From positions 1 to 52,740 of IMG/VR virus record IMGVR_UViG_3300042945_000786: a stretch of 52,740 nucleotides of DNA, one strand, 5' to 3'. Position 1 is the stretch's first letter, and each line of letters begins with the position of its first letter. The notes beneath the pieces are model-generated. The model did not search any database and was not told the DNA's origin. It saw nothing but the letters and a program-made list of their open reading frames with translations. This document shows positions 4,429 through 31,982 of this stretch, one piece after another. A program made the position numbers and the translations under genes. This DNA is from a virus.

Positions 4429-4701
4429 ATGAACATCATCGAAGACGACATGGACTACGAGGAAATCCTCATCACCCTCGAAGAGATGCGGGATTGGAAC
4501 ACCTTTGCCGACAGCCTGCTCGATCAGTATGCACTGCGGGGGGAACTGACCCACAGGCAGTGGGACGCAGCCGCGCGCATGATCATCAAGTGCCGCACAG
4601 GTGAGGCCAAGCGCGAGAAGAACCGCCGCCCGGTCGATGTGTCAGGCACTGATGGGCCAGATCGGCGAGCCTGCTGCCATCGATTTCATGGGCTACCTTG
4701 A
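4429..4701 (+). pseudogene. Small early protein with scrambled C-terminus
   Basis: The first 70 or so codons (MNIIEDDMDYEEILITLEEM, then FADSLLDQYALRGELTHRQW, DAAARMIIKCR, to VDVS) read as a normal acidic, helical phage protein with the GGAGAGACGCCATG leader. After about 4640 the frame carries a Cys/His/Arg-rich tail to 4701 that does not look like real coding. There, another frame becomes the coding one, encoding the 3' part of an ATPase gene. I infer that a deletion removed the true 3' end of this gene together with the 5' end of the next. Confidence 0.5.
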
Positions 4702-4981: not shown

Positions 4982-4988
4982 GGGCAAC

Positions 4989-8206: not shown

Positions 8207-8568
8207 TGACCGACGACCCAGTGGAGCAGGCTCTGGCAGAACTTCAAGACCTTGTGAAATGCCGTTGCCATCCAGCCTACACAGGCAGAGGTCTGCGCGA
8301 TCCTGACTGCGAGTGTGACAGTGCCGAAGCCCTGAAGGTATTAGCCGACCGCATTGAAGCCCAAGCCGCGGAGATCGAGAGGCTGGAGAAAGCGTGCGCC
8401 GAGTGGGCCGAAGTGTCGCAGTCGAATTATCAGCGAGCAAAGTCGGCAGAGGCCAAGCTGGCGATGGCGTTGGAGGCGGGAAAAACGATGGATGACGGGT
8501 GCGACTGTGAACGGTGCAACAAAGCCCGCGCCACCCTCGCAGAACTGAAAGGACAGGACGATGACTGA
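8206..8568 (+). CDS. Cys-rich coiled-coil early protein, 120 aa (paralogue A)
   Basis: The N-terminal part has CRCHP and CECDS cysteine groups, a coiled-coil middle contains RIEAQAAEIERLEKACAEWA, and the C-terminus has CDCERCNKARATLAELK. The Cys pairs suggest a small zinc-binding unit. The AQAAEIERL and ARATLAEL segments are repeated in the next two genes, so the three are partial paralogues or share exchanged segments. GGAGGAGAAGTG precedes the ATG. Function unknown. Confidence 0.6.
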   Translation: MTDDPVEQALAELQDLVKCRCHPAYTGRGLRDPDCECDSAEALKVLADRIEAQAAEIERLEKACAEWAEVSQSNYQRAKSAEAKLAMALEAGKTMDDGCDCERCNKARATLAELKGQDDD

Positions 8569-9201
8569 CATTACACACGAAGCGCCTGAGCGGATATGGG
8601 CTTGGGGTTGGCTGGCCGACAGTGTTTGGCAAGAGCAGACTTGGCAGCATGAAGATGAGCCGATGAGCACAGTGGAATACGTCCGAGCCGATCTGGTGCA
8701 GGCAGCGGAACAGCGGGGCTACGCCAATGCAATGGAAGCGGAGCGCAAACTGCACGAAGACCTGATCAAAGCCCAAGCCGCCGAGATCGAGAGGCTGCGG
8801 GGTGCGCTGACCACCTGCGAGAAATACCGTGACGCCTACGACGAGATGGGCAGGATCGGGACGCAGGCAGTGCGTGATCTTGAGGACAAGCTGGCGAAGG
8901 CGGTAAATGTCATTGATTGGGCTTTGATTTGTTGGGATGACCACAACAAGCATGGATACAACATGCAAGGCGATTGGGTTTCTGATGCCCGCGCCACCCT
9001 CGCAGAACTTACAGGAGGCAAGGATGAGTGATAACGACCTGATCCGCAGGGGCGATGCGATTAATGCCTGTCGCCAGTCCGTGCATCGTTATGAAGCGCA
9101 CGACGCCATCGACGCTCTGCCCGCCGTAAAGCCGCCTGCGCTGGATGCAGCTTCCGACAGCATCGAAGCCCAAGCCGCCGAGATCGAGAGGCTGCGGGGT
9201 G
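8356..9201 (+). repeat. Dispersed direct repeats shared by three adjacent genes
   Basis: A 34-base stretch beginning GCCCAAGCCGCCGAGATCGA is identical at 8771-8804 and 9168-9201, with a near copy from 8356. A second 23-base stretch beginning GCCCGCGCCACCCTCGCAGA is identical at 8524-8546 and 8987-9009. They encode AQAAEIERL and ARATLAEL. The nucleotide identity suggests recent duplication or gene conversion. Confidence 0.75.
8561..9031 (+). CDS. Hypothetical early protein, 156 aa (paralogue B)
   Basis: The N-terminus (THEAPERIWAWGWLADSVWQ, later STVEYVRADLVQAAEQ) resembles small phage accessory proteins known from many early regions. The middle is a coiled coil with KAQAAEIERLRGAL, and the end repeats DARATLAELTGGK. 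It overlaps paralogue A by 8 bases and paralogue C by 8. Role unknown; the N-terminal segment is typically found in variable accessory gene cassettes. Confidence 0.6.
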   Translation: MTDITHEAPERIWAWGWLADSVWQEQTWQHEDEPMSTVEYVRADLVQAAEQRGYANAMEAERKLHEDLIKAQAAEIERLRGALTTCEKYRDAYDEMGRIGTQAVRDLEDKLAKAVNVIDWALICWDDHNKHGYNMQGDWVSDARATLAELTGGKDE

Positions 9202-9335
9202 ATATTGAACGCGGCCTGTCTGTGGCGAAAGAGATTGAGAAGGCGTGTCGCGGACTGCGAGATGAAGCCCAACCGATGACTGCCAAGGATGCTACGCGCT
9301 TGATAATCGCGGCCCTGAAAGGAGCCACGCAATGA
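9024..9335 (+). CDS. Hypothetical early protein, 103 aa (paralogue C)
   Basis: It starts MSDNDLIRRGDAINACRQSV and AHDAIDALPAV, a segment common in small phage accessory proteins. It continues with the shared coiled coil SIEAQAAEIERLRGDIERGL and a C-terminal AKDATRLIIAALKGA. The ATG is preceded by AGGAGGCAAGG. Overlaps on both sides indicate coupling. Function unknown. Confidence 0.6.
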   Translation: MSDNDLIRRGDAINACRQSVHRYEAHDAIDALPAVKPPALDAASDSIEAQAAEIERLRGDIERGLSVAKEIEKACRGLRDEAQPMTAKDATRLIIAALKGATQ

Positions 9336-10027
9336 CCGACTACACCACCGACCACCGCTTCAATCTTGAGGCTTACCTTGCGACCCACACCCTGCCCAAG
9401 GGCTTGGGCGACACGGAAAGCGCCTGCACTCTGGCCGCTATCAATCTCGCCATGTCTGGAGATTTAACGGACGACATTCCAGACTGCATGTCGGAGGTCT
9501 TGGGCAGGGCCGCAATCGGTCTGCAAGATGCCATGCCCGACGAAATGCGTAATGGCCAGCGATACAAGCGGCTCATTCCCGACATGCCCGGCACTGGTCG
9601 GGCGCAAGAGCAAGAGCGCCTTGCAATCATGCTCGATTGGGTGTGGACGGCAGTGTTGCCTCACCTCCAGCCTATCGCGGATAAGGACGGCTTTGGGGAG
9701 CAGTGGCGGCTGATGTGCAAAGAGCGGACACCCGATGCCGCCGCCGCTGCCTCCGATGCCGCCGCCCGTGCCGCCGCCGCTGCCGCCAATGCCGCCCGTG
9801 CCGCCGATGCTGCCGCCAATGACGCCCGTGCCGCCGATGCCGCCGCCGCTGCCTCCGATGCCGCCGCCGCTGCCGCCAATGACGACGCCTATGCCGCCAC
9901 CTATGCCGCCAATGCCGCCGCCTATGCCGCCGCCGCCCCCTCCGTCGCCGCTGCTGACTTCTGGGCGACTGTAGACCCCATCGGCGTATTGGAACGCATG
10001 ACTTATCTGACAGGAGCCAAACCATGA
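9332..10027 (+). CDS. Early protein with long Ala-rich repeat insertion, 231 aa
   Basis: Residues 1-130 look like a normal folded domain (HTLPKGLGDTESACTLAAIN, CMSEVLGRAAIGLQDAMPDE, IMLDWVWTAVLPHLQPIADK). Residues about 134-202 are a low-complexity run of Ala with periodic Asp, Asn, Arg and Tyr, encoded by GCC-rich repeats. The C-terminal 25 residues (FWATVDPIGVLERMTYLTGA) are again ordinary. Ala-rich insertions of this kind occur in other phage early proteins and vary in length by slippage. Starts with an ATGA overlap; ends overlapping the next start. Confidence 0.65.
   Translation: MTDYTTDHRFNLEAYLATHTLPKGLGDTESACTLAAINLAMSGDLTDDIPDCMSEVLGRAAIGLQDAMPDEMRNGQRYKRLIPDMPGTGRAQEQERLAIMLDWVWTAVLPHLQPIADKDGFGEQWRLMCKERTPDAAAAASDAAARAAAAAANAARAADAAANDARAADAAAAASDAAAAAANDDAYAATYAANAAAYAAAAPSVAAADFWATVDPIGVLERMTYLTGAKP
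9735..9945 (+). repeat. GCC-rich degenerate triplet repeat
   Basis: About 210 bases built from GCC, GCTGCC, GATGCC and AATGCC units inside the gene at 9332. The other frames read as poly-Pro/Met (plus strand) and poly-Gly (minus strand), which creates long spurious ORFs. Likely a slippage-prone tract. Confidence 0.75.
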
Positions 10028-10245
10028 CCGACGACCTCCGCGTCCAACTGCAAGAGCAGGCGCGACAGGCAAAGTATTGGCAGGAGCGCGCCGAATACTG
10101 GCGAGACCTATGGTCACGGACCGCGAACCGCCTGATGCAGGTCGACCCAGAGTTCAACAAGCCGAGCGAGACCGTGGCCGACGAACTGAAGAGGCTTGAG
10201 CGCATTCTGTCGAGCGACAACCCAAACCCGTGGAAGGACGTGTGA
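10024..10245 (+). CDS. Hypothetical coiled-coil protein, 73 aa
   Basis: A charged helical protein starting MTDDLRVQLQEQARQAKYWQ, with aromatic residues spaced along the helix and a second helix SETVADELKRLERILSSD. It is coupled by ATGA to the Ala-rich gene and by TGATG to the next. No family recognised. Confidence 0.6.
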   Translation: MTDDLRVQLQEQARQAKYWQERAEYWRDLWSRTANRLMQVDPEFNKPSETVADELKRLERILSSDNPNPWKDV

Positions 10246-17483: not shown

Positions 17484-17501
17484 CATCTGAACTTTCAGAT
17501 G
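17484..17501 (-). terminator. Hairpin at the end of the late operon
   Basis: CATCTGA (17484-17490) and TCAGATG (17495-17501) form a 7-bp stem around ACTT; it includes the stop codon of the 2989-aa gene. Together with the hairpin at 17449 it separates two converging operons. Confidence 0.45.
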
Positions 17502-20500
17502 TCCCTCATGAGTTGGTTGGCGCGAGCGGTGAGTTGCTGCCTCCGCTCGTCCAGCCTCTCCAAAATGAGACGCTTCTGGTCTTCAGGTAGTCTGCCTTCC
17601 CTGACCTGACGCATCTGTCTGGAGAGTTTCCTGAGAGCATTGTCAATCGCACGAACGGCGCCAGAGACTTTCAGTTCATCAGAGAAGCGCTCACGGGCAT
17701 CAGCAAGGCGCTCCGTGTTGCCCTCCTCTACGGCAGCCTTGACCTCATCAAGGGCGGTCAGGACGCGGTTCCTCTTCTCGACGTAGGCGCCTGTGTCTTC
17801 CCTTGTCGTGACGGTGCCTATGATCTTCCCGAAGATCGGAACATTCCTGACCACATCTTCAGAGAAGCCCTCATCATACGCCCTGAACGGCGTCTCTGCC
17901 GTCCTGATGACAAAGCGACCGACGCCACCTGTCAGATACTCAAACCAGAAGTCGATGAGATCAGGTGACACATCGACCATACCCTTCACTTCTGTCGTGC
18001 CGCCGGTGACAGAGTTCATGGCGTTGGCCAGCCATACAGCCGGAACACTTGTGGTTGACCAGTAGAGTTGGCTGGAGGGAGTCCTGTCGCCGGGGAAGCC
18101 TTCCTTATAGACAGGCTGGTTGGCAAAGTTCTCGTTCTGCCAAATGTCGATGAACGGATCGAGCACGGTTGGGGAGGCCGCGTTGGCAAAGCTCTCGCTA
18201 CCGCCAATCGGGTTAACCGTATCCAGCATGGTGCCGACAATGCTCCCGGCAGCCTCGCTTGGCTCATACGCTCCGCGCGACAGACGTCCCATGGCGCGGC
18301 CCAAGTTGTGCGCCATGTTCAGGCCGTAGGGCATCGGGATGGAGATGTACGAGCGATCAGTGAAGCCGAAGACATCAGGCAGGATCAGGTTGTGCTCGAG
18401 GACGTACTCAGGAATCTTGTCGTAGAGCTTCTCGCCATCCTCATCGTCTCCCGACATTATGGCATTGAGGTAGTCCTGCATGATGCCAACGCCGATTGCG
18501 GCAGCCCAGAACTTCTGAACCTTCTTTGACCTGAGTGCCGCGTTCAGCATGGCGAAGGAGCCCTGAAGCGAGGCGTTGTAGAACAGGTACATGGCGTTCA
18601 TGAACGTCTTGTAGTCGCCGCCCTTGGCAAAGTTGACGGTGATGTTCCGGGCAGCCTGAGCCGCACGCTGAGGCGTGAAGCCCTTGTCGAGTAGGGCCTT
18701 GTAGGTTGTGACGCGGATGCCGTTCTCGATGACCGTGTTGTAGTCCTCGACGAAGCTAAGGAGGGACATCGCCCCCTTGCCCACGAAGCCGTTCTTCACG
18801 CGGTTGAACTGCTTGCGCGCACCGCTGTCGGCGATGTCGCCGATGATGCCGCTGATGTTGTTCATCTGGTCGGCAACCGTGTTGACTTGGTTCGTCGCGT
18901 TCTGGCCCCCGTTCTTCACGAAGTCACGGTAGATTCTGGCCCACTCGGAAGAGTTGTCGTTGTTGCGGATGGATTGCTTGATGCCGCGAAGTGCACCCGG
19001 AACATCCCTCACGATCTTCCGCGTCAGGCCATCGATCTCGTACTGAGCCACGTTCACGCCCGCAGTCTGAAGGTCGCGGAACATGTTGGTGATGAAGAAG
19101 GCCGGGTTGAGAGAGGTGTTGATGCTAGCCAAGTACCGGTTGATTGTCGCCAAGGCACGGATCAGCCCGTTGTTGTGAGTGGGCGACATGCTCCCCTTGA
19201 GGGCGGATGCGATGGCATCGCTCTCCAGTTTGACGATGACCTCCTTGCCGTCCTCCTTCACGACAAAGATGTCTGGCTCGTTGCGGAAGTTCGGATCGAG
19301 CACGGTCTGGACGGTCTGGACCACCGTGCCGTCAGCGCGCTTGCGCTCCACGAGGACGCGCTTCTGCACATCCTTCATGTCGCCCGGCTTCAGGATGCGG
19401 CCATAGCCCTTGGTCTTGGCGGGGTCGGAGCGCAGCAGTTGCAGGAAGGACTGGCCCACCTTGTTCCGCTCTGCCCTGATGATCGCGTTCTGGTTCTGCA
19501 CGAGCAGGTTCGGGATGATATTGTCAGCGTAGTCGTAGCGACCCAGAGAGCGCCGGTCCTCCCTGCGGCGGGCACCGTACATGGGCGAGCGATACGGCCC
19601 CGTGGCCTGCTCATCCACCGGCTCTCCAGAAGGGTCGCGCTTGCCACGCAGGGGGACGTAGTTGTCGTACTGAGGAACATCGACCGTGTCCCCGGTGGTG
19701 GGGTCTGTGTACTGGAAGAACTCCCTCGGGATCAGGCCACCCTCAAGGCGGACATCGTTGGTCGACTGCACGATCCTCTGCGTAGCGTCGGCGATCTTCT
19801 GCATCGTGCTGGCGTAGGGGCTGCTTGCGAACCAAGCGAGGATCGCGTCGGCCTCACCGTCAGTCATGCCAGAGCCAGCATCGTTCTCTGGGTCGATGCC
19901 ACGGATGTACTCGTTCCGCTCCTTGGCATGGCTGGCGTAGAGGAAGATGTCAGCCATCGAGAGAGCGTTGCTGCGTGTGTCATTGAAGGCCACATCGGCG
20001 AAGCCACGGCCAACAGATGCAGAGTTGGACGCCGCGATGAGTTGCTGCTTGGCTTGGTCAGTGACCTTGAGGCTGCCGACGAGGTCGATGAGCGGGCGGT
20101 ACAGGTTGGTCTGTGCCTGCTCCACCTTCTCCCCAACCACGCCGTGGTAGAGTTCCTCCTGCATGTAGGTGTCCATGGCGTCGGTGATGTTCAGGCCATT
20201 GGCCCGAAGCTCATCGATCATCCGACCCACGGGGATCATGCCGTCTTGGAACTTCTTGATGATGCCGTCAGCGATCTGCTTGGAGCGTGCATCGTCTGCC
20301 CCGATGCCGGTGATGCGAAGGCCTTTTGCCAACAGGTCAGCAGCCTTCGAGTAGACCACGTTGGTCTGCTTCTGTGCCGTCTGGCGCTGGACCTTTCCGG
20401 CAACAGAGTTCCGCGTCGGCACCATGGACTGCCGCACCAGAGGCGTTGGAGATGGCGCTGAGGTGGGCTCTTGGGCTGGCATGTCGCCAGCCCTGCCCTC

Positions 20501-23500
20501 AGTCCATGTCCAATCAGGCATGAGGCCAGTCTTCTGATCCGCGAAGACAGTGTCCTCGACCTTGGCATTCCGGTTCGAATCGCCATAGGGTCCGTAGTTC
20601 AGCCAAGAGTTCTGGCCACGAGTTTCCGATGTGATTGCCCCAACGGCAGAGCCGGTGAAGAGGCGCACATGCGCCTGCCAAGCGTTCTCTTCGCCACGGG
20701 CGCGGAAGCCAGAGCCCTCTAGGCCGTGGCCGAATGCGTCGTGAACGGCACGGAAGAGGTCATTGGCGAGGACTGGCGCCGTCTGCTCGCTATCGGGTGA
20801 TCCAACCGGCCAGCGAAGACCGGTGTCCTCGAGCATGGGGTTGTCTTCGACATTCAGTTCGGTCGCGCCAGAGCCAAAGCCTCCCGCTGTTGGGAAGACG
20901 CCCATCTGCTTGTTCGCCCTGATATCGCGCAGTGCGTTCCAAGGGGATGACAGATATGCCTCGTTGTCAGGGCGAGACAGATCGGTGAACCAGAACTGGT
21001 AGCCATCCTGCGCCAGCGCATTGTACTGCGCCAATGTCTGGCGAATCAGGTTCTGGTATGCCTCCCTAACCTTGGGGTCTTGCGGCGCATGAGGCATGGC
21101 GTCGTACGCCGCAGCAATGCGCGCCGCTCGCTCGGGATCGACATCGACGTACTCTGACTGGCGGCTAAGATCGAGCCCGATGCTCTTGGCGTACTTGTCG
21201 GCGATGCGAACAAGACTTGGGTCAGGACCAGTGAAGCCCTCGACGCGGGGCGCTCCGGGCAGCGGCTCTAGCGGCGAGAGAGCAACTGCTCGTTCTGGTG
21301 CTGCCAGCGTGCGAGCCTCAGTTTCCCGAGTTCCAAGTCCTCCGACTCCTCGTCCGGGGACGGCTGAATATCGATCCGCTTCGCGACCTCCGGTAATTCT
21401 TCTCTGGCGCGGACGTATTCCTCCACCGGCAGCGCCTGCCCCTCGTCCAATTCCCTCAACTCTATCGGCATATCCGACAGAAGCTCCGCTTGCTCGTCTG
21501 CCGACGGATCGGTCGAGGCGTACGCCAGCCAGTTCTCCCTCGTAAGAGGAAGGCGCAATTTTACCAGCAGCCCCACCACCGGGTCCAAACCAAGTAGGCT
21601 CATTGATACCTCCCATGAACCGTTCAACATCGTCCCGCGCGGATTCGACGGAACGCTTCCCCTCGTTAACCTCACGCCAGATGCCATTAACTCTGGCAAC
21701 CTTCGCCTTGCTGCGCTTCTCCTCAGCAGGGAAGAGACCGCGCACAGCCTCCCAAGTGATCGACTGAAGTTCACGCGCCGTGATCCCAAGCGACCCAGCC
21801 GTCCTCCTGTAAGCCTCAGCGTATATACCATAGACACCGATAGCGCCAGTGTCTCCAATGCTCTTTGCTGCAATCCAGCCTTGCGGCTGCTTAGCCTTCG
21901 CCGGGCTGGACCCAAAGTTATGATGAACTTCTGCGCTGCTCCCAGATAGCGGGCGGATCAGTGCTGCGGCAACAGCGTGGGTATCGATGGTGACATCGCC
22001 ATGGGGCGCATCAGGGGCGAGGATGTTGTTGAAGAAGTTCCTGACCTTGTGCTGGTCGCCCATCGCAAGGCTCGTGGCCTCACGGCTCTGGTGCGTCAGG
22101 ACATAGATGGCCTTGGCGATTTCAACATTCGACCCCCAGCCAACCTTGCCTGACGGATCGCCGATGAAGTCACCCTCAGCGCTGACGGTGCGGTAGCCTC
22201 TCGGGTTGTAGGTCTCGTCGTATAGGCGAAGCCACATGGCCTTCAGGACCGGGTCTTCCAGACCGGCGTAACTGTTGGACATGACAATGCGGAGGGCGGG
22301 AGCGTATTGCTCCTTTCCGTAGATGCGCTGTGCCGTCTCGGCCATCTCCACGGTCGGCGTGAACGCGATCATGTTGCCGCGAGAGAAAGTCTGGTGGATG
22401 TCGATCAGGCGCTCCGCCAGAGAGACGTTCTGATACCAGTCCTTTTGAGGCGACAGAGCGGCGAGAACCCCAGCGACCGTAAAGTCTGGAATCTGGTACT
22501 GACCAGACATCCGCTCGGCGATCTTGCGAGCGCCGTTGTACCACAACTTGGACCGCTTCCTGATCTCTTGAGGCACGCGGTTGTGGAGCCACAGCAGGTT
22601 GTCGGAGACAAACTGGATGAAGTCTTCTGCGATCTGGTCAGGGTCTTCAGATGCCGTCACGAACCCCGGATAGCCCTTGATGACCTGCATGTTGTGAGCA
22701 AAGGCCTGCGGGCTCTGCTTCATCGCGTTCAGGTCGACGATCAGGTTCTGCGTCAGCGGGTCTTCGGTCGCCCTCTTGGTGTAGGGCTGCCGAGTAGAGA
22801 TGCGATCTTCAGTATCGCCAGACGCCATGATCCGAGTAATGGCTTGGCCCTCGGCCCAGTCATTGAAGTCAGCGACCTTTTCGCGGTCATACACGCCGTC
22901 TGTCTTGAACGCCCCCTCAGATGCAAGCACCATCGAGAACCGACGATACGGCTTCGGCCCGCGCTCGTAGACGCGCGTCTCTGACGGGTAGAAACTGTGG
23001 ACATAGTGGAACGGGTCTGGCGTCAGCCTGTTGTTCTCGGACAGGACGAGACGTAGACGCGGTGCCTTGAGCGGGCGGTTGTCGATCCACTCGAGCGCGA
23101 ACTGATCACCGTCCTTGCCGCCGATGACGGAGTCGCCGTTCCTCATCCCCTGCTGCTTCCAGACCTGAAGCATGTCGAAGATGGCCTTGTTGACGTCCTT
23201 GTACTTGGACATCTCGTAGAGTTCTTGGTCGTGCTTGCGGGCAATGATGTGCTTCAGCCCGTACCCGGTATCGACACCACGCTCACGGAAGATGTGCTCG
23301 CCGACAGGCAGGATGACCGACTGCTTCCTGCCACGGTAGTCAATGATATTGCCGTAGGAGTAGGAGTCAGTGCCGTCCCTGTTCTTCACGGGAGACGGCA
23401 CAGGCATGAACGACTTGCGTTCGCGGGGGTCAGCCGCGATTGCGACGGCAAGGTCGTCAAGTTGCCGGTTCAGGTCGGCCAGTTCTTCGGGGGACAACTG

Positions 23501-26464
23501 GTCATCGACAGAGACATCAGCCTCTGCCGTCGGGACTGCGGCGGGAGCGGCGGCTTGAGCGGCAGGAGCGGCGCCACGCGGCCTTGCTCCGATCTCACCG
23601 TAGCGGATGCCCTCGAAAATCTTCTCGACCGAGTCGAAGCCACGCTCGGTGTGTACCCCGATGATGGCCTTGAAGAAGTTCTTGAGGCGCTCGAAGATCG
23701 TCTTCTGCGGTCCTTTGACCGTGGTCTTGCCATCAAGGTAGTCGCGGAAGAGTTCTGCGACAGCCTCCTCCTGAATGACCGCCTCATCGTACCCCATGGC
23801 ACGGGCGCGCTCTTCATAGGTGTAGCTGCGCTCGACAGGTTTGCCCTGCTTGATCGCGACGTACTTCTTGTTCTTGGCGTAGGCGGTGAGTGTGTTCCAC
23901 TCTGCGTCAGTGATGACACCCATCAGGCGAAGGGCGTGGATCACCTCGTGGTTCATGACGCTGGCGATGGAGTCGAACAACTCCTGATCGGTCATGCCCT
24001 TGCGATAGATACCCATCGACAGGCTGATGATCCGCTTGACAGGATCGTACTTGCCCTCGGCAACACCCATGACCTTGCCAGACTGGTCGCGGGCCAGCAT
24101 GGCCTGAGCGCCCTCAAGGCGAACCTCCTTGAGGCCGAGGTTGTTGAGCCGCTTGCGCAGGGCTGCAAACACATTCTGCTGCTGTGCCGTGAAGATCGGT
24201 GTGTAGTTCACCGGCTCCTTCATCGTGGCAGCATTGAAGCGGGCCTGACCTGCGGCCTCACGCTCCTTTGCGGCCTGCACCGTGGCGGAGGGGTCGCGGA
24301 GTCGTGCCGTGGCTGTGTCGCGCAGTTTCTTCAGATCGGCTGCTGTCTGCTCCAGTTGCTGAAGCCGTGCCTTCTGAGCATTGTTCAGTTGAACTTTTTT
24401 CTGCCGCTTGCGGAGATTAGCAGCCTGTTTCTCCGCATCACCGATCTGCTGGTTATAGCCAGCGATATTCTGCCGCAGCGTCTCCATCCGCTGCTGGATG
24501 GCTGGTGCCGTCGCTTCGGTGACAGGCACAGCCACCTTGGCAGCATCCAGCGCCACACGCTCTACGGACGGGATGGCGCCAGCCTGCTTCGCGTTCTTGA
24601 TCTCGGTCTCAGCCGCAGCGACGCGAGCCTTCGCTGCCTCGATTGAGGCATCAAGGGTGTCGAGCTTCTGGTTGAACAGGGCGGGATCGGCCCTCTTCCC
24701 GGTCGAGTCCTTGCCGGTCTGCTCTACGCGGCGGACTTCCTCGATGAGGTTCTTCCGCTCCTTCTGCGACAGATCGATCTGCTTGTTCAGCCCGTCGATC
24801 TCCTGACGCAGGCCGGTCTCGATGCTATCGGTGCGGGCGATGGGCTCGAGACTGTAGCCAGTGCGAGACTTCGTGTCAGCGCGTATCACGCCGCGAGACA
24901 CCATCTCGTCGCGGATGTCGCGGACCACCGTGTTGGGAACCTTCGCCTTGGTGATGTCCCTCACAGCCTTCTGAATCTTGGGGAAACTGACGCCCTTGTC
25001 AGCCTTCACCTGTTGCACCGCGCGGTCGTACTGCTCTTGGGTGAAGGTCTTGTTCTCCACCGGGCCGAAACGAGCAATGCCGCCAGTGACGGGCTTCTGC
25101 TTCTTCGCCTCGCGCTCGGAAGCGGCAGTGCCGACGATGGCTTGCAGTTCCTCTAGCGTGACTTGAGGGAACGGTTCCTGACCGGCGTTGGCACGCGCCT
25201 GAGAGATGGCAACGCGCTCTTCCATGGGGAGACTTGTGAGGGCCACAGGGCGGGTAGGTGTGATAGCCTCCATACCCGCACGACCACGCAGCGCTGTCTC
25301 TTCCTGAGGCGTCGTACGGGCCGTGGATGGAGCGGGTAGGGCAAGAGGCGCAGCCTCCGGGGATGCGACCTTTTCAGCGGCTTCTGCTGCCCGGCTCTCT
25401 CGTGCGTTCTGGATGTACTGGTCGCCGCGAGCGCCCAGTTCCTCCATGTCCTCGTCGAGTTCTCGCTTTTTACGCTCCGCTTCTTCCTTGCGGCCAGTGA
25501 CAAGAGCGCCGCCCGCAGCGCCGATACCGCCACCAAGGACGGCGGCTCCGAGTGCAGCCTCGCCATAGCGTTGAATTGCCTCCTCGCTGAGAGGGTCTTT
25601 GCCAGCCTGAAGAATGCCGAGCAGTTCCTGACCAAGTTCAGTCGGCACCTCAGTGACAACGCCACCCGCAGCACCTCGCGCGGCACGGGTGAAGAGACCG
25701 CCCTCAGCGGCCTTCTTCAGGACGTTTGCGCCATACTTGGCTCCGACAGCAGACAGGACACCGTCGAGCAGAGATGCCGGTGCAGCGGCAAGGGCAGCAG
25801 CGCCTTCGCTCACCTCAACGGGGCGACCCGCCTCGATGTCAGCCTCCTTCTGCTGCTCGCGGAAGTCGCCATAGAAGTACGGTAGAGACGCGAGGGCAGC
25901 ACCACCGAGGGCACCAACCGTCCCGCCGACAACGGCGCCTACCGGCCCACCGAAAGCGCCAATTGCAGCACCGGCCTTTGCGCCAGCGTAGCCACCAGCA
26001 AGTGCGACGGCGGTCTGCGGCGCAGAACCACCAGCAATTTCGCCAACGTAGCTTGCGGCACTGCCGATTGCGCCCTGAGCCTCGCGCTCCTTCTCGAGGG
26101 CGGCAGCCTCAGCCAGACGATCAAGCTCAAGACCCTGACGCTCCGCGATACCAGCGCCGTATCCAGCAAGGCTCTCGAGCCCAGTGACGGTGCCGATGCC
26201 CTCCAGAGCGGAGCCGTATGCTCGGCCTAGCCCGGCTAGCCCTACGTCGATGCCGCGACCGAATGCGGTGGTGTCTTCAGGGGGAGCGGCTTCAGTCGCG
26301 ACCGGAGCCCCGAACATCGACTCATACCGCGACTGGAACGCAGACTCTTGCTGCGCCACATACTGATCGATCCGGGCTTGCTCTGCTGGGGTCGGTACGT
26401 CCCCCGCGATGTTGACAGCATACTGCGTGCCGCTGAAGGCACCGGGGACGTATATGACGGCCAT
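17495..26464 (-). CDS. Giant polyvalent internal virion (ejection) protein, 2989 aa
   Basis: The largest gene, last in the late operon. Regions by residue: 1-330 Ala/Gly-rich helical with membrane-active-looking segments (GYAGAKAGAAIGAFGGPVGA); 550-730 coiled coils; 755-940 a zinc-protease-like domain with HEVIH at 839-843 and EEAVAELFRDYLDG after it; 1020-1180 a segment with VDTGYGLKHIIARKHDQELY resembling PBECR (Barnase/EndoU/ColicinE5/RelE-like) phage nucleases; 1280-1620 a helical domain with AGVLAALSPQKDWYQN; 1750-1990 a domain with NDLFRAVHDAFGHG; 2310-2800 an LPD38-like region with NPAFFITNMFRD. Large polyvalent proteins are thought to be injected with the DNA. GGAG lies eight bases before the ATG. 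Confidence 0.8.
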   Translation of the reverse strand: MAVIYVPGAFSGTQYAVNIAGDVPTPAEQARIDQYVAQQESAFQSRYESMFGAPVATEAAPPEDTTAFGRGIDVGLAGLGRAYGSALEGIGTVTGLESLAGYGAGIAERQGLELDRLAEAAALEKEREAQGAIGSAASYVGEIAGGSAPQTAVALAGGYAGAKAGAAIGAFGGPVGAVVGGTVGALGGAALASLPYFYGDFREQQKEADIEAGRPVEVSEGAAALAAAPASLLDGVLSAVGAKYGANVLKKAAEGGLFTRAARGAAGGVVTEVPTELGQELLGILQAGKDPLSEEAIQRYGEAALGAAVLGGGIGAAGGALVTGRKEEAERKKRELDEDMEELGARGDQYIQNARESRAAEAAEKVASPEAAPLALPAPSTARTTPQEETALRGRAGMEAITPTRPVALTSLPMEERVAISQARANAGQEPFPQVTLEELQAIVGTAASEREAKKQKPVTGGIARFGPVENKTFTQEQYDRAVQQVKADKGVSFPKIQKAVRDITKAKVPNTVVRDIRDEMVSRGVIRADTKSRTGYSLEPIARTDSIETGLRQEIDGLNKQIDLSQKERKNLIEEVRRVEQTGKDSTGKRADPALFNQKLDTLDASIEAAKARVAAAETEIKNAKQAGAIPSVERVALDAAKVAVPVTEATAPAIQQRMETLRQNIAGYNQQIGDAEKQAANLRKRQKKVQLNNAQKARLQQLEQTAADLKKLRDTATARLRDPSATVQAAKEREAAGQARFNAATMKEPVNYTPIFTAQQQNVFAALRKRLNNLGLKEVRLEGAQAMLARDQSGKVMGVAEGKYDPVKRIISLSMGIYRKGMTDQELFDSIASVMNHEVIHALRLMGVITDAEWNTLTAYAKNKKYVAIKQGKPVERSYTYEERARAMGYDEAVIQEEAVAELFRDYLDGKTTVKGPQKTIFERLKNFFKAIIGVHTERGFDSVEKIFEGIRYGEIGARPRGAAPAAQAAAPAAVPTAEADVSVDDQLSPEELADLNRQLDDLAVAIAADPRERKSFMPVPSPVKNRDGTDSYSYGNIIDYRGRKQSVILPVGEHIFRERGVDTGYGLKHIIARKHDQELYEMSKYKDVNKAIFDMLQVWKQQGMRNGDSVIGGKDGDQFALEWIDNRPLKAPRLRLVLSENNRLTPDPFHYVHSFYPSETRVYERGPKPYRRFSMVLASEGAFKTDGVYDREKVADFNDWAEGQAITRIMASGDTEDRISTRQPYTKRATEDPLTQNLIVDLNAMKQSPQAFAHNMQVIKGYPGFVTASEDPDQIAEDFIQFVSDNLLWLHNRVPQEIRKRSKLWYNGARKIAERMSGQYQIPDFTVAGVLAALSPQKDWYQNVSLAERLIDIHQTFSRGNMIAFTPTVEMAETAQRIYGKEQYAPALRIVMSNSYAGLEDPVLKAMWLRLYDETYNPRGYRTVSAEGDFIGDPSGKVGWGSNVEIAKAIYVLTHQSREATSLAMGDQHKVRNFFNNILAPDAPHGDVTIDTHAVAAALIRPLSGSSAEVHHNFGSSPAKAKQPQGWIAAKSIGDTGAIGVYGIYAEAYRRTAGSLGITARELQSITWEAVRGLFPAEEKRSKAKVARVNGIWREVNEGKRSVESARDDVERFMGGINEPTWFGPGGGAAGKIAPSSYEGELAGVRLDRSVGRRASGASVGYADRVEGIGRGAGAAGGGIRPRQRRITGGREADRYSAVPGRGVGGLGTRETEARTLAAPERAVALSPLEPLPGAPRVEGFTGPDPSLVRIADKYAKSIGLDLSRQSEYVDVDPERAARIAAAYDAMPHAPQDPKVREAYQNLIRQTLAQYNALAQDGYQFWFTDLSRPDNEAYLSSPWNALRDIRANKQMGVFPTAGGFGSGATELNVEDNPMLEDTGLRWPVGSPDSEQTAPVLANDLFRAVHDAFGHGLEGSGFRARGEENAWQAHVRLFTGSAVGAITSETRGQNSWLNYGPYGDSNRNAKVEDTVFADQKTGLMPDWTWTEGRAGDMPAQEPTSAPSPTPLVRQSMVPTRNSVAGKVQRQTAQKQTNVVYSKAADLLAKGLRITGIGADDARSKQIADGIIKKFQDGMIPVGRMIDELRANGLNITDAMDTYMQEELYHGVVGEKVEQAQTNLYRPLIDLVGSLKVTDQAKQQLIAASNSASVGRGFADVAFNDTRSNALSMADIFLYASHAKERNEYIRGIDPENDAGSGMTDGEADAILAWFASSPYASTMQKIADATQRIVQSTNDVRLEGGLIPREFFQYTDPTTGDTVDVPQYDNYVPLRGKRDPSGEPVDEQATGPYRSPMYGARRREDRRSLGRYDYADNIIPNLLVQNQNAIIRAERNKVGQSFLQLLRSDPAKTKGYGRILKPGDMKDVQKRVLVERKRADGTVVQTVQTVLDPNFRNEPDIFVVKEDGKEVIVKLESDAIASALKGSMSPTHNNGLIRALATINRYLASINTSLNPAFFITNMFRDLQTAGVNVAQYEIDGLTRKIVRDVPGALRGIKQSIRNNDNSSEWARIYRDFVKNGGQNATNQVNTVADQMNNISGIIGDIADSGARKQFNRVKNGFVGKGAMSLLSFVEDYNTVIENGIRVTTYKALLDKGFTPQRAAQAARNITVNFAKGGDYKTFMNAMYLFYNASLQGSFAMLNAALRSKKVQKFWAAAIGVGIMQDYLNAIMSGDDEDGEKLYDKIPEYVLEHNLILPDVFGFTDRSYISIPMPYGLNMAHNLGRAMGRLSRGAYEPSEAAGSIVGTMLDTVNPIGGSESFANAASPTVLDPFIDIWQNENFANQPVYKEGFPGDRTPSSQLYWSTTSVPAVWLANAMNSVTGGTTEVKGMVDVSPDLIDFWFEYLTGGVGRFVIRTAETPFRAYDEGFSEDVVRNVPIFGKIIGTVTTREDTGAYVEKRNRVLTALDEVKAAVEEGNTERLADARERFSDELKVSGAVRAIDNALRKLSRQMRQVREGRLPEDQKRLILERLDERRQQLTARANQLMRDI

Positions 26465-26524: not shown

Positions 26525-28303
26525 TTACCCTTCCTCGCCAACTGTCGCGTCAAATGGGGCGGACGTTGCTGCGGCGAACGCGCGCTCAAGCGCTATAAGT
26601 TCTCGCCGGTAAAGCTCCTTTGTCTCTTCATCGATAGCCTCGCCCATGTTTTTTATGATCTCCGCCCTCTTGCCATAATAGGTGGCGATGTCACTGGGCT
26701 TCAACACCGGGGCTCTGGTCTCAGCCTTGACGGTAGCTGCGCCACGGGCGCCAGCAGCGGCGCGTGCCGCACGGAGCCTCTCCTGTGCCGTCATCAGGGA
26801 TAGACGATCCTCTTCGTACTGGTCCCGAGCCTTGCGGAAGCCCTCGACGCCAACGAGGCCAGCCTCTCCAAGAGCGCCTGCGAACGTCGGCTGACGAGAA
26901 GACATGAGTGCCATGCCAGCCTGAGCCAGAGCCAGCCACTTGTCTTGCTCTGCGCGCTTCTCGCGCTGCTGGAGAATGTTGCCGATCTCCGTCTCAAGTG
27001 GAGACATGGCAGCGGCAATGCCTCCTCCCGTGCGGTCAGCGGAAGGTGCAGCGACAGGCCGAGAGACACCTGTGCCGGTGTAGGTACCAGCGGGAGCGCG
27101 GTCATCGCGAGGCATGGGTGACGCCCCTGCCGGGGTCGTAACGACGCCGGGCTCAACAACCACTTCTTCTGCCTGTGGCGCATTTGCCGGTGGCGCAATA
27201 TACTCGGGCAGTACACCCGCCTCGATCTCGCCAAGGCTCGGCGGAACCTCATCAGGGGGTCGCCTGCTGGCCATAAGGGCCCCAAGACCCCCCATGGGCA
27301 TCGAGAATGGCGGCATCGCTCCGGGGATGCGTAGTCCTGAGCGGGCCAGTATGTCGCCCCTGTTCCTCAGCGTTGCGGCTTCTGCTGTGTCCATGCCGAG
27401 ACGCCCTGAAAGCGCCTCCTCGCCAAGCGCAGCCCTAGCAAGCTCCATCTCCATCCCCTCAGGGACAGCGGGCGGAATCGGAGGATAGGTATACTCATCA
27501 AGGCGATTTCTCATGGCGGCTTCGGAACTCGTATCCATGCCAATACGAGATTGCCGCGCTTCCCTAGCGGCAGCGGCTCTTGGGTTTGTTGGCAACGGTG
27601 CCGTCGAACCAGCAGCGGCGGCTAGAATCTCCTCTGCCGTCATTGATGCAGGGCTGTAGCCAAGGTCGTCGCTGGCATCAAAGATACCGCCAGCAACACC
27701 GCCTTCCAAAGACTCGAGTCGGTCCGCACGTTGCGGCGCCGCAGGAATAGAAGGTCTTTCCATGAGCGGTGAGATGCCGCCAATTGGTGCAGGTGGCGCA
27801 GCAGGGAGGAACGGCCTGCGAGTAATGCCAGCCGATCTGGGAGAACCGTCCACATTGTGTGTTTCGCCGTAGCGGTCGAGCCACATGTTCTGCTCTTCGC
27901 TAGAGCCGCCAAGAGGGTAGGGCGGGGCAACTATCAAGCCGCCACGAACCACAGGCGCCCCATCCCGCATCTTCTGCACATACCCGCCGTCAGCCATTCC
28001 CTGCACGGGTGCCTGTGGTGTGGTGGCGGTGTTCATGGCCATGTCTGTTTGAGGGGCCATGGCTCGAGCGGCACTGGCAATGCCCTGCTGCGGGACGCCT
28101 GCTGCTGTCACGGCGTCTTCTGCGACCGTGGTCTGCGGCTGACCCTGCCGCTGCGCGAACTCCTGCTCCATCTGCTTCCGGCGCGCGATTTCGCCGAGAA
28201 CGAGGAACTGAGGCGCTTGCCCTGACGGCATCTGCATCTCGCGAACGAGTTGATCGAGCGGCATACCCTTCAGAGCTTCCTGAATCTGGATGACGTTCAT
28301 CAT
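26525..28303 (-). CDS. Internal virion protein, 592 aa
   Basis: An Ala/Pro/Gly-rich, largely disordered protein with helical ends. The N-terminus is MNVIQIQEALKGMPLDQLVR; the middle has repeated motifs GRLGMDTAEAATLRNRGDIL and SRIGMDTSSEAAMRNRLDEY; the C-terminal helices include LALAQAGMALMSSRQPTFAG and LSLMTAQERLRAARAAAGAR. This style is typical of podovirus internal/ejection proteins located before the giant protein. The start is the ATG overlapping the previous stop (TGATG). The GMDT repeats may be docking motifs. Confidence 0.65.
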   Translation of the reverse strand: MMNVIQIQEALKGMPLDQLVREMQMPSGQAPQFLVLGEIARRKQMEQEFAQRQGQPQTTVAEDAVTAAGVPQQGIASAARAMAPQTDMAMNTATTPQAPVQGMADGGYVQKMRDGAPVVRGGLIVAPPYPLGGSSEEQNMWLDRYGETHNVDGSPRSAGITRRPFLPAAPPAPIGGISPLMERPSIPAAPQRADRLESLEGGVAGGIFDASDDLGYSPASMTAEEILAAAAGSTAPLPTNPRAAAAREARQSRIGMDTSSEAAMRNRLDEYTYPPIPPAVPEGMEMELARAALGEEALSGRLGMDTAEAATLRNRGDILARSGLRIPGAMPPFSMPMGGLGALMASRRPPDEVPPSLGEIEAGVLPEYIAPPANAPQAEEVVVEPGVVTTPAGASPMPRDDRAPAGTYTGTGVSRPVAAPSADRTGGGIAAAMSPLETEIGNILQQREKRAEQDKWLALAQAGMALMSSRQPTFAGALGEAGLVGVEGFRKARDQYEEDRLSLMTAQERLRAARAAAGARGAATVKAETRAPVLKPSDIATYYGKRAEIIKNMGEAIDEETKELYRRELIALERAFAAATSAPFDATVGEEG

Positions 28304-29472
28304 CACTGAAGACCCCTGTAGAGACCGTATGCGGAGATACCAGCACCGAGAGCTTGCTGAAGCGGACTAGGCTGCGGCTGATAGACTGTCGAGGAACCGG
28401 CAGCGGCAACTGGAAGGCCGCGAATGAACTGGGAGTAGGCGCCCAGTTGCTCCATCGGGTAGCCCTGTTGGCGCAGGAAGTCCTGATAGGCCACGTCGAG
28501 ACCTGCCTGCCTGCGGGACAAGTCTCCAAGACCCTGAGCCTCAAGAAGTTGCGCTGCCTGAATGTCCCCGGCGCGGGCGCGCTCACCAAGATCGGCGGCG
28601 GCACGAGCCTGCTCGGCGCTGAAGCCCATAGCCTGAAGTTGGAACTCACGCTGGCGCATCGCCTCATCAGCGCGAGCGGCCTGCACCCTTGCCTGCTCTG
28701 CAATGTTGATGCCCTGAGTCCTCGCCTGCTCGGCAGCACGAGCCTGCTGGACGCGAGCAGCCTCTTCGAGGGTGATGCCTTCAGCCCGTGCGAGCTCCGC
28801 GATCTGACGCTGCTGCGTCTCCATCTGCGCGGCGCGGTCGGCACCGAACTGGGCGGCAGCCTGCTCATAAGCGCGTTGGGCGCCACCAGCCTGAATGTCG
28901 CCGATCTGCTTGGCCAAGGCTTCTTCCGCAAGGCCCTCCTGCACAGCCTGACGAGAGCCACCAAAGGCGCCCGCCCCGATAGCACGGGCCGCACGAGAGC
29001 CACGCTGGCGCTCGAACTCCTGCATGGCGGAGGCCTTCTCACGGTCTACGACCGCCTGCATGTAGGGTGACATGTAGGTCGAGACTTCCTGACCGCTGAA
29101 CTGACGAGCAGGGTCGTATTGTTGCGCCCGCGCAACTCCAGCCTCGAATCCTGTAAACGGCGTTGCCTGCCCTGCGGTGAACTCAGCGGGACGCTGCTGT
29201 CCCAGTTGCTGCGCCTGCGACCCGAGGGACGAGAGCGTGCTCATGGCCTCACCGAGACCAGCGGCAGGGCGACCCGCGATGTTGCGGATCATCTGCTGGG
29301 ACGCGGTTATGTCCTGCCCAACTTGCGCCAACCGCTGCCCGCCGTAAGGGACGTAAGGCTGTTCACTTGCCGCCTTGGACTTCTTGAGGATGTCTTCGTA
29401 GTACGGCTTCGCCCACTCTGGGACATCCTGCACCGTCGTCTGGGTCGCTGTTTGACCGCCGCCCTTACCCAT
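28303..29472 (-). CDS. Internal virion protein B-like, 389 aa
   Basis: A 389-residue protein. The N-terminus VPEWAKPYYEDILKKSKAAS with PYVPYGGQRLAQVGQDITAS is characteristic of a podovirus internal virion protein of the T7 gp14 type. The middle (about 130-300) is an Ala/Gln/Arg-rich helix with repeated ARAEG/QARVQAARADEAM-like heptads, probably an extended coiled coil crossing the envelope or lining the capsid core. It overlaps the upstream acetyltransferase-like gene by 8 bases. Confidence 0.68.
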   Translation of the reverse strand: MGKGGGQTATQTTVQDVPEWAKPYYEDILKKSKAASEQPYVPYGGQRLAQVGQDITASQQMIRNIAGRPAAGLGEAMSTLSSLGSQAQQLGQQRPAEFTAGQATPFTGFEAGVARAQQYDPARQFSGQEVSTYMSPYMQAVVDREKASAMQEFERQRGSRAARAIGAGAFGGSRQAVQEGLAEEALAKQIGDIQAGGAQRAYEQAAAQFGADRAAQMETQQRQIAELARAEGITLEEAARVQQARAAEQARTQGINIAEQARVQAARADEAMRQREFQLQAMGFSAEQARAAADLGERARAGDIQAAQLLEAQGLGDLSRRQAGLDVAYQDFLRQQGYPMEQLGAYSQFIRGLPVAAAGSSTVYQPQPSPLQQALGAGISAYGLYRGLQ

Positions 29473-31064: not shown

Positions 31065-31982
31065 TTACGCCAGTAGCTTGGCGAGAGTCTGGGGGCCTGC
31101 TACCCCATCAGGCTTCAGGCCTTGGGCTTGCTGCCACTCTTTGAGGGCTTTTTCGGTGCCGGGGCCGAAGCTACCGTCGGCTGTGATGCCGAGGGCTTTT
31201 TGGAGAGCGGCAACTTCTCCGCCACGGCTTCCAACGCGGAGGCTTTTATTTCCTCCACCTTGTCCTGCACTGCGTCCTCCAACTTGTCCTGAACCTTGTC
31301 CAGCACCTTCCCCGCCACTGCTTCCATCACCATCCCCTGCGGGGTTTTGCCCAGTAAGGACCGCAAGACCTTGAACATAACGCCGTCTCCTGTCTTCGAG
31401 GCCGATGTCGCCTCCGTTGATGATCTTGGTGACACGAGCAACATCGCCCGTGTCAGCCACGTCGTTCAACTTGCGGCTGTCCCAGAACCACAAGGCAGAC
31501 ACCAGAGCGCCCTCTTTGGTCTCCAGATAGGCGGCGACCTCTTCCGCACTCTTGCCAATAGCCTTCCCGAACGTCGAGTAGTTCGAGCGACCAGTGACCT
31601 GCTTCAGGCCACGCCCACGGAAGCGCCAGCCATCGCCCTCTTGAACGTTGCCGAGAGCGCCGCCCTTCGAACGGAACTCGTCCATGTAGACGTAGTTCGC
31701 GATCTTCTCTGGCTTGCGGGCATACTCGTTCGCATTGCGCTTGTTGGCACCGAAGTACTTCGGGAACACGCGCTCCAGCGATTCCTTGCTGTAGTTGAGG
31801 TTCTCCTCCAGCAATTTGAAGTCCGCGCTTTCATGCGCGCACTGGCTGATGAAAGAGGCGATCCTCTGCGGCGTGGTGATCCCGTACTTCGGGAGCATGT
31901 CATTGAGTGTCTTGCACCACTCCGCAACCTCAGTGTTGGTCGGGATCATCTTGGCAAGTTGTGCCTCAGTCAGGAGTGCCAT
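31065..31982 (-). CDS. Endolysin: GH19 muramidase/chitinase-like with C-terminal peptidoglycan-binding domain
   Basis: It degrades the cell wall at lysis. Residues 1-200 form a GH19 lysozyme-like domain: FISQCAHESADFKLLEENLN with likely catalytic Glu51 and Glu59/60, then GDGWRFRGRGLKQVTGRSNY and LWFWDSRKLNDVAD. A Gly/Gln/Ser-rich linker (about 210-245) leads to a PG_binding_1 domain (LRVGSRGGEVAALQKALGIT, GSFGPGTEKALKEWQQAQGL). There is no signal peptide, so release should depend on a holin. The linker overlaps another ORF with better codon bias. Confidence 0.85.
   Translation of the reverse strand: MALLTEAQLAKMIPTNTEVAEWCKTLNDMLPKYGITTPQRIASFISQCAHESADFKLLEENLNYSKESLERVFPKYFGANKRNANEYARKPEKIANYVYMDEFRSKGGALGNVQEGDGWRFRGRGLKQVTGRSNYSTFGKAIGKSAEEVAAYLETKEGALVSALWFWDSRKLNDVADTGDVARVTKIINGGDIGLEDRRRRYVQGLAVLTGQNPAGDGDGSSGGEGAGQGSGQVGGRSAGQGGGNKSLRVGSRGGEVAALQKALGITADGSFGPGTEKALKEWQQAQGLKPDGVAGPQTLAKLLA
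31115..31378 (-). CDS. Out-of-frame ORF nested in the endolysin gene, 87 aa (candidate overprinted gene)
   Basis: The ATG at 31376-31378 has GGAG eight bases upstream (GGAGACGGCGTTATG). The product starts MFKVLRSLLGKTPQGMVMEA and continues as a regular Lys/Asp/Glu amphipathic helix (KVLDKVQDKLEDAVQDKVEE), then a Ser/Pro/Lys tail. Over the helix segment most third codon positions in this frame are G or C, as in other genes here, whereas the overlapping endolysin linker frame has mostly A or T third positions. That asymmetry suggests this frame was, or is, a real gene. Beyond the helix the endolysin frame has the normal bias. Function unknown. Confidence 0.4.
   Translation of the reverse strand: MFKVLRSLLGKTPQGMVMEAVAGKVLDKVQDKLEDAVQDKVEEIKASALEAVAEKLPLSKKPSASQPTVASAPAPKKPSKSGSKPKA

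What the first reader, a model, noticed from the sequence alone, without database searches (positions are those of the whole stretch)
17495..26464. 2989-residue multi-domain ejection protein with protease-, nuclease- and LPD38-like regions
One gene takes up 17% of the window. It combines an HExxH motif (residues 839-843) followed by a Glu-rich helix, a PBECR-like segment (GYGLKHIIARKH), a helical ALSPQ domain, an HDAFGHG domain and an LPD38-like C-terminus. Large polyvalent proteins of phages and mobile elements are proposed to be injected effectors. This arrangement may be a delivery vehicle for several anti-host activities in one polypeptide, perhaps self-cleaved by its own protease domain.
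Basis: partly seen in the sequence, partly recalled or inferred. Interest (0 to 1): 0.7.

Follow-up and report, generated by a model that had tools for sequence, protein, structure and literature searches.

The report
Phage ejection protein, glycosylase-like cargo
A very large phage protein, probably packed in the virus particle and sent into the bacterium with the viral DNA, appears to carry a swappable set of enzymes, including one shaped like the enzymes that cut bases out of DNA, a cargo I found no report of in such proteins.

Summary
It is a polyvalent ejection protein of the kind proposed by Iyer et al. 2017, so the general idea is not new. Its LPD38 C-terminus is shared with "DarB-like" giants of Burkholderia phages; the JC1 giant was found in virions (PMC9144972). 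It lies next to a "DNA ejection protein" gene in an order kept in relatives. New: (1) the "ALSPQ" domain (Pfam DUF7178, function unknown) folds like HhH-type N-glycosylases (pLDDT 92; all ten rows at Z 5 or more are OGG1, AGOG or DUF2419), with an invariant Lys/Asp pair; sequence profiles alone do not show this. (2) An unrelated-looking domain fills the same slot in most relatives and independently gives the same matches. (3) A sister phage (75-80% DNA identity) has this cassette replaced by an ADP-ribosyltransferase plus the other glycosylase-like form. (4) Stand-alone DUF7178 genes sit in T7-type ejection operons (33 of 57). The zincin motif is well conserved; the PBECR-like piece is only consistent; self-cleavage is untested. 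Substrate unknown.

The parts
17495..26464 (-). giant polyvalent ejection protein gene (P0001, 2989 aa)
   Evidence: open frame; relatives
25475..26464 (-). N-terminal region (residues 1-330), Ala/Gly-rich with four hydrophobic stretches between 153 and 322; PHROG 6958 'virion structural protein' at 52-375
   Evidence: E 1.2e-13; Kyte-Doolittle scan
23585..24229 (-). zincin-like metallopeptidase domain (residues 746-960; HExxH 839-843, EE 899-900, E904)
   Evidence: 25 of 25 aligned sequences keep H, E, H, E, E, E; sub-threshold Peptidase_M13 in 10 of 25
22895..23422 (-). PBECR-like segment (residues 1015-1190; H1072, S1157)
   Evidence: alignment of 23, counts; no Pfam match
21545..22822 (-). 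DUF7178 domain, N-glycosylase-like (residues 1215-1640; K1473, D1494)
   Evidence: Pfam; AlphaFold2 pLDDT 92.2; VIA-align rows; K and D in 54 of 54
21363..23605 (-). exchanged cassette (residues 954-1701): PBECR-like + DUF7178 here, ART-PolyVal + 'alt' glycosylase-like domain in sister phage L003
   Evidence: DNA similarity stops at 23606 and resumes at 21362; L003 Pfam and alt domain
20495..21262 (-). HDxxGH domain (residues 1735-1990), unassigned putative metal-binding domain
   Evidence: invariant H, D, H, E, H, E in 21 aligned; no Pfam match for the window's copy, no relevant PDB match
17498..20452 (-). C-terminal frame (residues 2005-2989), shared by LPD38 giants
17882..18427 (-). LPD38 (residues 2680-2861)
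   Evidence: Pfam E 1.7e-40
26525..28306 (-). 593-aa neighbour gene, kept next to the giant gene in relatives
   Evidence: 52 of 94 loci (many cut short)
28303..29472 (-). 389-aa 'DNA ejection protein' (PHROG 4287)
   Evidence: E 2.2e-15; kept in 43 of 94 loci

Best explanation
This is a virion-packaged, DNA-entry-coupled delivery protein. A constant frame (hydrophobic N-terminus, zincin, LPD38 C-terminus) is made next to the other ejection proteins and packaged; a variable cassette between them carries enzymes that act in the cell as the DNA enters. In this phage the cassette holds a PBECR-like segment, a DUF7178 domain with an N-glycosylase-like (HhH/OGG-like) fold, and an HDxxGH domain. The DUF7178 domain most likely cleaves the N-glycosidic bond of a damaged or modified base, most probably in DNA, using Asp1494 with Lys1473 as Schiff-base nucleophile. 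Steps shown: architecture, conserved neighbourhood, fold similarity from a confident model, invariant Lys/Asp, cassette exchange, recurrence in other ejection operons. Steps inferred: packaging and injection of this protein, catalysis, DNA as substrate, whether host or phage DNA, and any cleavage of the giant protein by its zincin.
For: Delivery: PHROG 4287 ejection gene alongside and conserved gene order; C-terminal homology to Burkholderia DarB-like giants at E 1e-36 to 1e-39, and the JC1 giant gp69, which has LPD38, was found in purified virions with 51 unique peptides (PMC9144972). Glycosylase-like fold: model pLDDT 92.2, pTM 0.90; all ten rows at Z 5 or more are DUF2419 (8.4), AGOG (7.9, 7.3, 5.1) or OGG1 (7.0-5.6), next row 3.2. 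A different domain in the same slot ('alt', from L034) independently gives MjaOgg Z 10.3 over 193 of 206 residues, DUF2419 8.5, AGOG 8.0-6.7, next row 4.5. Lys and Asp invariant in 54 of 54 (DUF7178) and 13 of 13 (alt). Same slot: of 34 clusters, alt 21, a third form 4, DUF7178 3, none detected 6, never two together. Cassette swap with L003. Stand-alone DUF7178 genes lie between T7-type ejection genes in 33 of 57, and between portal and coat genes in phage CRP-738.
Against: Sequence profiles give no support: no PDB match for either domain, no HhH-GPD Pfam match, hhalign against E. coli Nth or a 30-sequence Nth/MutY profile not significant with a zincin control scoring as high, and DUF7178 against alt not significant. 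Foldseek E-values are no better than 0.3 for DUF7178 and no glycosylase is better than 1.1 for the second model. The tool warns that Z under about 13 can be a common arrangement in helical proteins. DUF2419, the top row for DUF7178, is a queuosine hydrolase, so the substrate need not be DNA. No experiment on this protein.
Confidence: 0.6

Rival explanations
1. Entry-coupled repair: the delivered glycosylase excises oxidised or otherwise damaged bases from the phage's own incoming DNA.
For: The nearest DNA-acting folds are 8-oxoguanine glycosylases; named phages with DUF7178 include seawater Roseobacter and Rhodobacteraceae phages, exposed to light and oxidants (inference); the gene position suits acting on entering DNA.
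Against: Three very different forms in one slot and exchange against an ADP-ribosyltransferase cassette look more like an effector under conflict than a repair enzyme; no substrate known.
Confidence: 0.3
2. Host- or defence-directed effector: the glycosylase removes modified bases from host DNA, or hydrolyses a modified nucleotide or signal molecule, as DUF2419 does with queuosine.
For: DUF2419 is the top or second structural row for the two domains and releases queuine from queuosine (PMC9406330 passages); cassette exchange with an ART; divergence of the slot.
Against: No target identified; no useful defence-library match (one LmuB hit, E 0.0053, on 554-713 only).
Confidence: 0.35
3. The glycosylase-like fold is not catalytic and serves as a DNA- or RNA-binding or structural module of the ejection machine.
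For: Fold similarity shows no function; Foldseek and profile searches are not significant.
Against: Invariant Lys/Asp in two unrelated-looking forms, by eye also in the third, and a conserved core SPQKDWYQN, HKVRN, DTHA that looks like an active site.
Confidence: 0.2
4. One reading: self-processing anti-host vehicle whose zincin releases the effectors and whose PBECR segment is an RNase.
For: Zincin motif invariant in 25 of 25; Iyer 2017 proposed such processing (section read) and defined PBECR by a helix His and C-terminal Thr/Ser (section read), kept here in 23 of 23 and 21 of 23.
Against: N4 virion RNAP, which has an MPTase, is packaged unprocessed (Iyer 2017); no PBECR Pfam match in 10 of 10 fragments; no cleavage site known.
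Confidence: 0.35

Closest known systems
Polyvalent proteins of phages with LPD38 (Iyer et al. 2017, PMC5512222)
   Same: LPD38, zincin MPTase, PBECR-like and ART modules shuffled in one virion-linked polypeptide (sections 8 and 19 read)
   Different: The paper's main text holds no word beginning 'glycosylase'; in the sections and passages I saw, DUF7178, its 'alt' counterpart and HDxxGH are not described
DarB-like giants of Burkholderia phages (Bcep22, JC1 gp69)
   Same: Homologous C-terminus, LPD38, found in JC1 virions, similar neighbours: acetyltransferase 146 aa, virion proteins 332 and 510 aa, giant 4515 aa (PMC9144972 tables)
   Different: JC1 gp69 carries lytic-transglycosylase, methylase-like and helicase-like regions instead of the cassette here; the neighbour ejection gene here finds no Burkholderia match
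HhH-GPD 8-oxoguanine DNA glycosylases (OGG1, AGOG, MjaOgg)
   Same: Overall fold in two models; Lys/Asp pair (catalytic role of the pair in the known enzymes recalled)
   Different: No significant sequence match; a larger phage domain inside a giant protein
DUF2419 / queuosine salvage hydrolase
   Same: Top or second structural row for both domains
   Different: Acts on queuosine, not DNA (PMC9406330 passages); no sequence similarity detected
Phage N4 virion RNA polymerase
   Same: Giant ejected polyvalent protein with MPTase and an encapsidation-linked region (Iyer 2017 passages)
   Different: No RNA polymerase domain found here

Membership tests
Phage polyvalent proteins (Iyer 2017) | several domains of disparate predicted activity in one polypeptide | tested here: met
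   zincin, PBECR-like, DUF7178, HDxxGH, LPD38
Phage polyvalent proteins (Iyer 2017) | encoded among virion genes | tested here: met
   next to PHROG 4287 ejection gene and virion genes; order kept in relatives
Phage polyvalent proteins (Iyer 2017) | packaged and injected | not testable with these tools
   only by homology to JC1 gp69 in virions
LPD38 (PF18857) | Pfam score over gathering cut-off | tested here: met
   139.6 bits against 27
DUF7178 (PF23802) | Pfam score over gathering cut-off | tested here: met
   89.5 bits against 27
Zincin metallopeptidase | HExxH plus downstream Glu helix | tested here: met
   25 of 25 keep H, E, H and E899, E900, E904
Zincin metallopeptidase | zincin fold | tested here: inconclusive
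   modelled only in L034, much of it at pLDDT about 80-90; no zincin row in the fold searches, which the alt part filled
PBECR nuclease | His in N-terminal helix and C-terminal Thr/Ser | tested here: met
   His 23 of 23; Thr 20, Ser 1 (the window), gap 1, Leu 1 of 23; that the His lies in a helix was not modelled
PBECR nuclease | match to a PBECR Pfam family or BECR fold | tested here: inconclusive
   no Pfam PBECR match in 10 of 10 fragments, no relevant PDB match; fold not modelled
HhH-GPD DNA glycosylase superfamily | HhH-GPD fold | tested here: met
   ten of ten rows at Z 5 or more for DUF7178 and the five best rows for alt; Z is moderate for helical proteins and Foldseek alone not significant
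HhH-GPD DNA glycosylase superfamily | catalytic Asp, with Lys in bifunctional members | tested here: met
   K1473 and D1494 in 54 of 54; hhalign register with E. coli Nth K120/D138, itself not significant
HhH-GPD DNA glycosylase superfamily | significant sequence match to PF00730 or to known members | tested here: not met
   hence filed as 'works like', not as a member of PF00730
HhH-GPD DNA glycosylase superfamily | helix-hairpin-helix DNA contact and activity | not testable with these tools
   model coordinates not available to scripts; no assay

The most novel reading that the evidence does not exclude
Tailed phages of several kinds eject an N-glycosylase with their DNA, as a domain of LPD38 giants or as a separate protein of T7-type and portal-adjacent virion cassettes, often paired with an HDxxGH metalloenzyme; the glycosylase slot has at least three interchangeable, strongly diverged forms, so base excision at the moment of DNA entry is a widespread, unrecognised step of infection.
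Probability: 0.35. Interest if true: 0.8.

Novelty: new variant of a known kind. Interest (0 to 1): 0.62.

Why it matters
It gives a concrete, testable function to DUF7178, a family listed as of unknown function (no paper in the held library names it), and links it to phage DNA entry in at least three virion contexts. It also gives a natural experiment: two sister phages with a constant delivery frame and different cargo, which separates delivery parts from effector parts. If the enzyme acts on entering DNA it would reveal repair or editing at injection; if on host DNA or nucleotides, a new class of delivered effector.

Tried and rejected
Sequence routes to the glycosylase claim failed and are told as such: phmmer and profile searches of the PDB with DUF7178 and alt gave nothing relevant; hhalign of DUF7178 against alt, DUF7178 against E. 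coli Nth, alt against Nth, and a 30-sequence Nth/MutY profile against DUF7178, alt and the third form were all not significant, and a zincin control scored as high. In some searches the insignificant alignments nevertheless put Lys1473 on K120 and Asp1494 (or the alt Asp) on D138; the DUF7178 and alt alignments did not reproduce that register, while the third form's did.

Combined alignments for folding zincin, PBECR-like and DUF7178 together failed because MAFFT misplaced the fragments; so the PBECR-like segment, the third form, the window's HDxxGH domain and the C-terminus were not modelled. In model 2 the HDxxGH part had pLDDT about 55 and was not interpreted; the alignment behind it (A13) also forced five rows of the third form or similar onto the alt part. 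VIA-align lists for model 2 contain no zincin or HDxxGH match; that list was filled by the alt domain and is no evidence of absence. For HDxxGH, a PDB hit at E 0.0093 named m4D2 was judged chance. I considered, from memory of a HExxGH motif, an aromatic-amino-acid-hydroxylase-like reading of HDxxGH; nothing tested supports it.

The idea that stand-alone DUF7178 proteins usually carry a hydrophobic leader was tested and dropped: 9 of 57 reach a Kyte-Doolittle mean of 1.5 upstream of the domain. Pyrimidine-dimer glycosylases in roseophages (PMC11288001, PMC10783043 passages) are named there as separate repair genes, not as ejected domains.

Counts are of contigs, many near-identical or cut short; only clusters them (90% C-terminal identity), and it uses only ORFs with both zincin and C-terminal hits. 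L001, L002, L023 and L024 (the window's own match, its near copy and repeats of L002 and L003) were left out from then on, and L102 (the near copy again) from then on. The C-terminal scan kept the best 80 of 541, the DUF7178 scan 80 of 209, the HDxxGH scan 80 of at least 570, the alt scan 80 of at least 564.

Literature: searched 'DUF7178' (0 papers); 'DNA glycosylase' + 'phage' + 'virion' + 'ejection protein' (0); 'LPD38' (8, passages of two seen); 'HhH-GPD' + 'phage' + 'virion' (2, listing only); 'polyvalent protein' + 'glycosylase' (2, passages of PMC7824862 seen); 'DNA glycosylase' + 'internal virion protein' (6, passages of two seen); defence glycosylases (2, listing only). Only open-licence papers are held, so absence is limited to these.

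Full report
OBSERVATION. The gene is on the minus strand, 17495-26464, 2989 aa, 17.0% of the window. The window is a whole IMG/VR record of 52740 bases. A 98.7% identical copy in another contig (L002) supports the frame.

DOMAINS BY LIBRARY. Pfam gives LPD38 (E 1.7e-40) and DUF7178 (E 3.4e-25, best stretch 1289-1362) and nothing else over cut-off. PHROGs gives three giant families of unknown function for the C-terminus, phrog_6958 'virion structural protein' for 52-375, phrog_3842 for the DUF7178 part and phrog_3170 for the HDAFGHG part. The gene 28303-29472 is phrog_4287 'DNA ejection protein'.

THE CONSTANT FRAME. tblastn against 50,697 phage records finds 141 with the C-terminal 1002 aa, among them Vibrio, Burkholderia, Ruegeria, Escherichia and Bacteroides phages. 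In the three Burkholderia phages listed the match is in the DarB-like protein. The JC1 paper (PMC9144972, passages and tables seen) reports its giant gp69 (4515 aa) with LPD38 at 4195-4401 and finds it in CsCl-purified virions with 51 unique peptides. Upstream gene order (386 aa, 142 aa, ejection protein, 593 aa, giant) recurs in relatives: homologues of the ejection protein in 43 and of the 593-aa protein in 52 of 94 loci, many of which are too short to show them.

ARCHITECTURES. With local HMMs, 97 C-terminal ORFs (redundant, many cut) give 35 zincin-alt-PBECR-Cterm and 12 other types; the window is the only zincin-PBECR-DUF7178-HD-Cterm. Clustered at 90% C-terminal identity and restricted to ORFs with a zincin, there are 34 clusters: the slot between zincin and C-terminus holds 'alt' in 21, a third form in 4, DUF7178 in 3 and nothing detected in 6. 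No ORF in any of three overlapping sets (80, 100 and 79 ORFs) holds two forms.

CASSETTE SWAP. Sister phage L003 is 74.6% identical in DNA from just before the gene to residue 953 and 80.2% from residue 1702 on, with nothing matching in between, although neighbouring stretches match at 70-84%. In L003 the replaced part carries ART-PolyVal (37.7 bits, cut-off 31.2) and the alt domain. So the cassette with the PBECR-like and DUF7178 parts is exchanged against another cargo.

THE DUF7178 DOMAIN. An alignment of 54 sequences from the window and viral contigs keeps SPQKDWYQN, KVR and DTHA. By eye these recall the LSAQ, GVGRKT and VDTH motifs of endonuclease III; this was the lead, not a test. AlphaFold2 gave pLDDT 92.2 and pTM 0.90. 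Foldseek against the PDB is not significant (best E 0.31; AGOG third, E 0.40). VIA-align on the Foldseek list gives ten rows at Z 5 or more, all of the HhH-glycosylase kind: DUF2419 8.4 (222 aligned, 4.4 A), AGOG 7.9, 7.3 and 5.1, OGG1 7.0 to 5.6; the next row is 3.2. DUF2419 is described in print as structurally similar to DNA glycosylases (PMC9406330 passage). Lys1473 and Asp1494 are invariant in 54 of 54.

THE ALT DOMAIN AS INDEPENDENT TEST. The alt domain has no detectable profile similarity to DUF7178 (hhalign probability 1%), apart from a sub-threshold Pfam DUF7178 hit in L011 (E 0.0055). A model of L034 residues 790-1800 (zincin, alt, HD; mean pLDDT 68.7, alt part about 90) gives as its five best VIA rows MjaOgg (Z 10.3, 193 of 206 residues, 4.0 A), DUF2419 8.5 and AGOG 8.0, 6.9 and 6.7, all on the alt part; the next row is 4.5. 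Two unrelated-looking domains in one slot thus lead to the same narrow superfamily. Lys and Asp are invariant in 13 of 13 alt sequences. A third form has a similar Lys...Asp text (NKV...LVMDR) in four aligned sequences; its fold was not modelled. The tool warns that such Z values can be common arrangements in helical proteins, and all sequence-profile tests were negative, so I say 'works like a glycosylase', not 'is a member of PF00730'.

RECURRENCE ELSEWHERE. Of 57 complete DUF7178 ORFs under 1000 aa, 33 have homologues of L134's tail or internal-virion genes upstream and of its 1094-aa internal virion protein (phrog_6651) downstream, the arrangement of T7-type ejection genes (redundant contigs; the comparison with T7 gene order is recalled). 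In the isolated Roseobacter phage CRP-738 the domain is in gp40, between portal and coat genes. The HDxxGH domain is found with one of the three glycosylase-like forms in 38 of 80 loci, 27 of them without a detected LPD38-type C-terminus in the piece seen, including complete two-domain alt-HD proteins of 885-901 aa (L293, L300, L301; L293 and L300 read). So the two domains often travel together.

ZINCIN AND PBECR-LIKE PARTS. H839, E840, H843, E899, E900 and E904 are invariant in 25 of 25; ten of 25 give a sub-threshold Peptidase_M13 hit. Iyer 2017 describes such MPTases, proposes processing by them, and notes that N4 virion RNAP is packaged uncut (section 8 read). The PBECR-like part has the His (23 of 23) and terminal Thr/Ser (21 of 23) of that family's definition (section 19 read; counts) but no library match. 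In most relatives it sits directly before the C-terminus; in the window it lies next to the zincin.

HOSTS. Ten bacterial contigs hold C-terminal relatives, all proteobacterial by title or genus; a Porticoccaceae MAG is nearest at 38% and has zincin-HD-alt-PBECR-Cterm.

JUDGEMENT. What is new is a glycosylase-like domain as a probably delivered, exchangeable cargo. What it cuts is unknown; repair of entering DNA and attack on host DNA or nucleotides are both open. Self-cleavage is untested.

Noticed in passing
window 4698-6084 (+): Two overlapping ORFs match a DUF2201-type pair: putative metallopeptidase DUF2201_N (4698-5423) and VWA-like DUF2201 (5407-6084); the DUF2201_N profile continues into the second ORF, so a frameshift or split gene is possible.
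   Followed up: no
window 44366-47008 (-) and 31065-31982 (-): A tail-fibre-like protein carries three carbohydrate-binding CBM_5_12 stretches, and the endolysin also matches a phage chitinase family, which may hint at a chitin-associated host or surface.
   Followed up: no
window 39401-40060 (-): A gene among the virion genes matches PHROG 7278 'ferredoxin oxidoreductase' (E 4.6e-22), an unusual label in that position.
   Followed up: no
window about 8340-10060: Several short stretches match L002 in two or more places each, suggesting repeats in this region (second block).
   Followed up: no
L183 (Porticoccaceae MAG contig): A bacterial MAG contig encodes a 3072-aa relative with zincin-HD-alt-PBECR-Cterm, the nearest genome-collection relative and a possible host clue.
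   Followed up: partly
L124, L103, L149: Other LPD38-type proteins with DUF7178 in the slot; L124 keeps the usual order with PBECR just before the C-terminus.
   Followed up: partly
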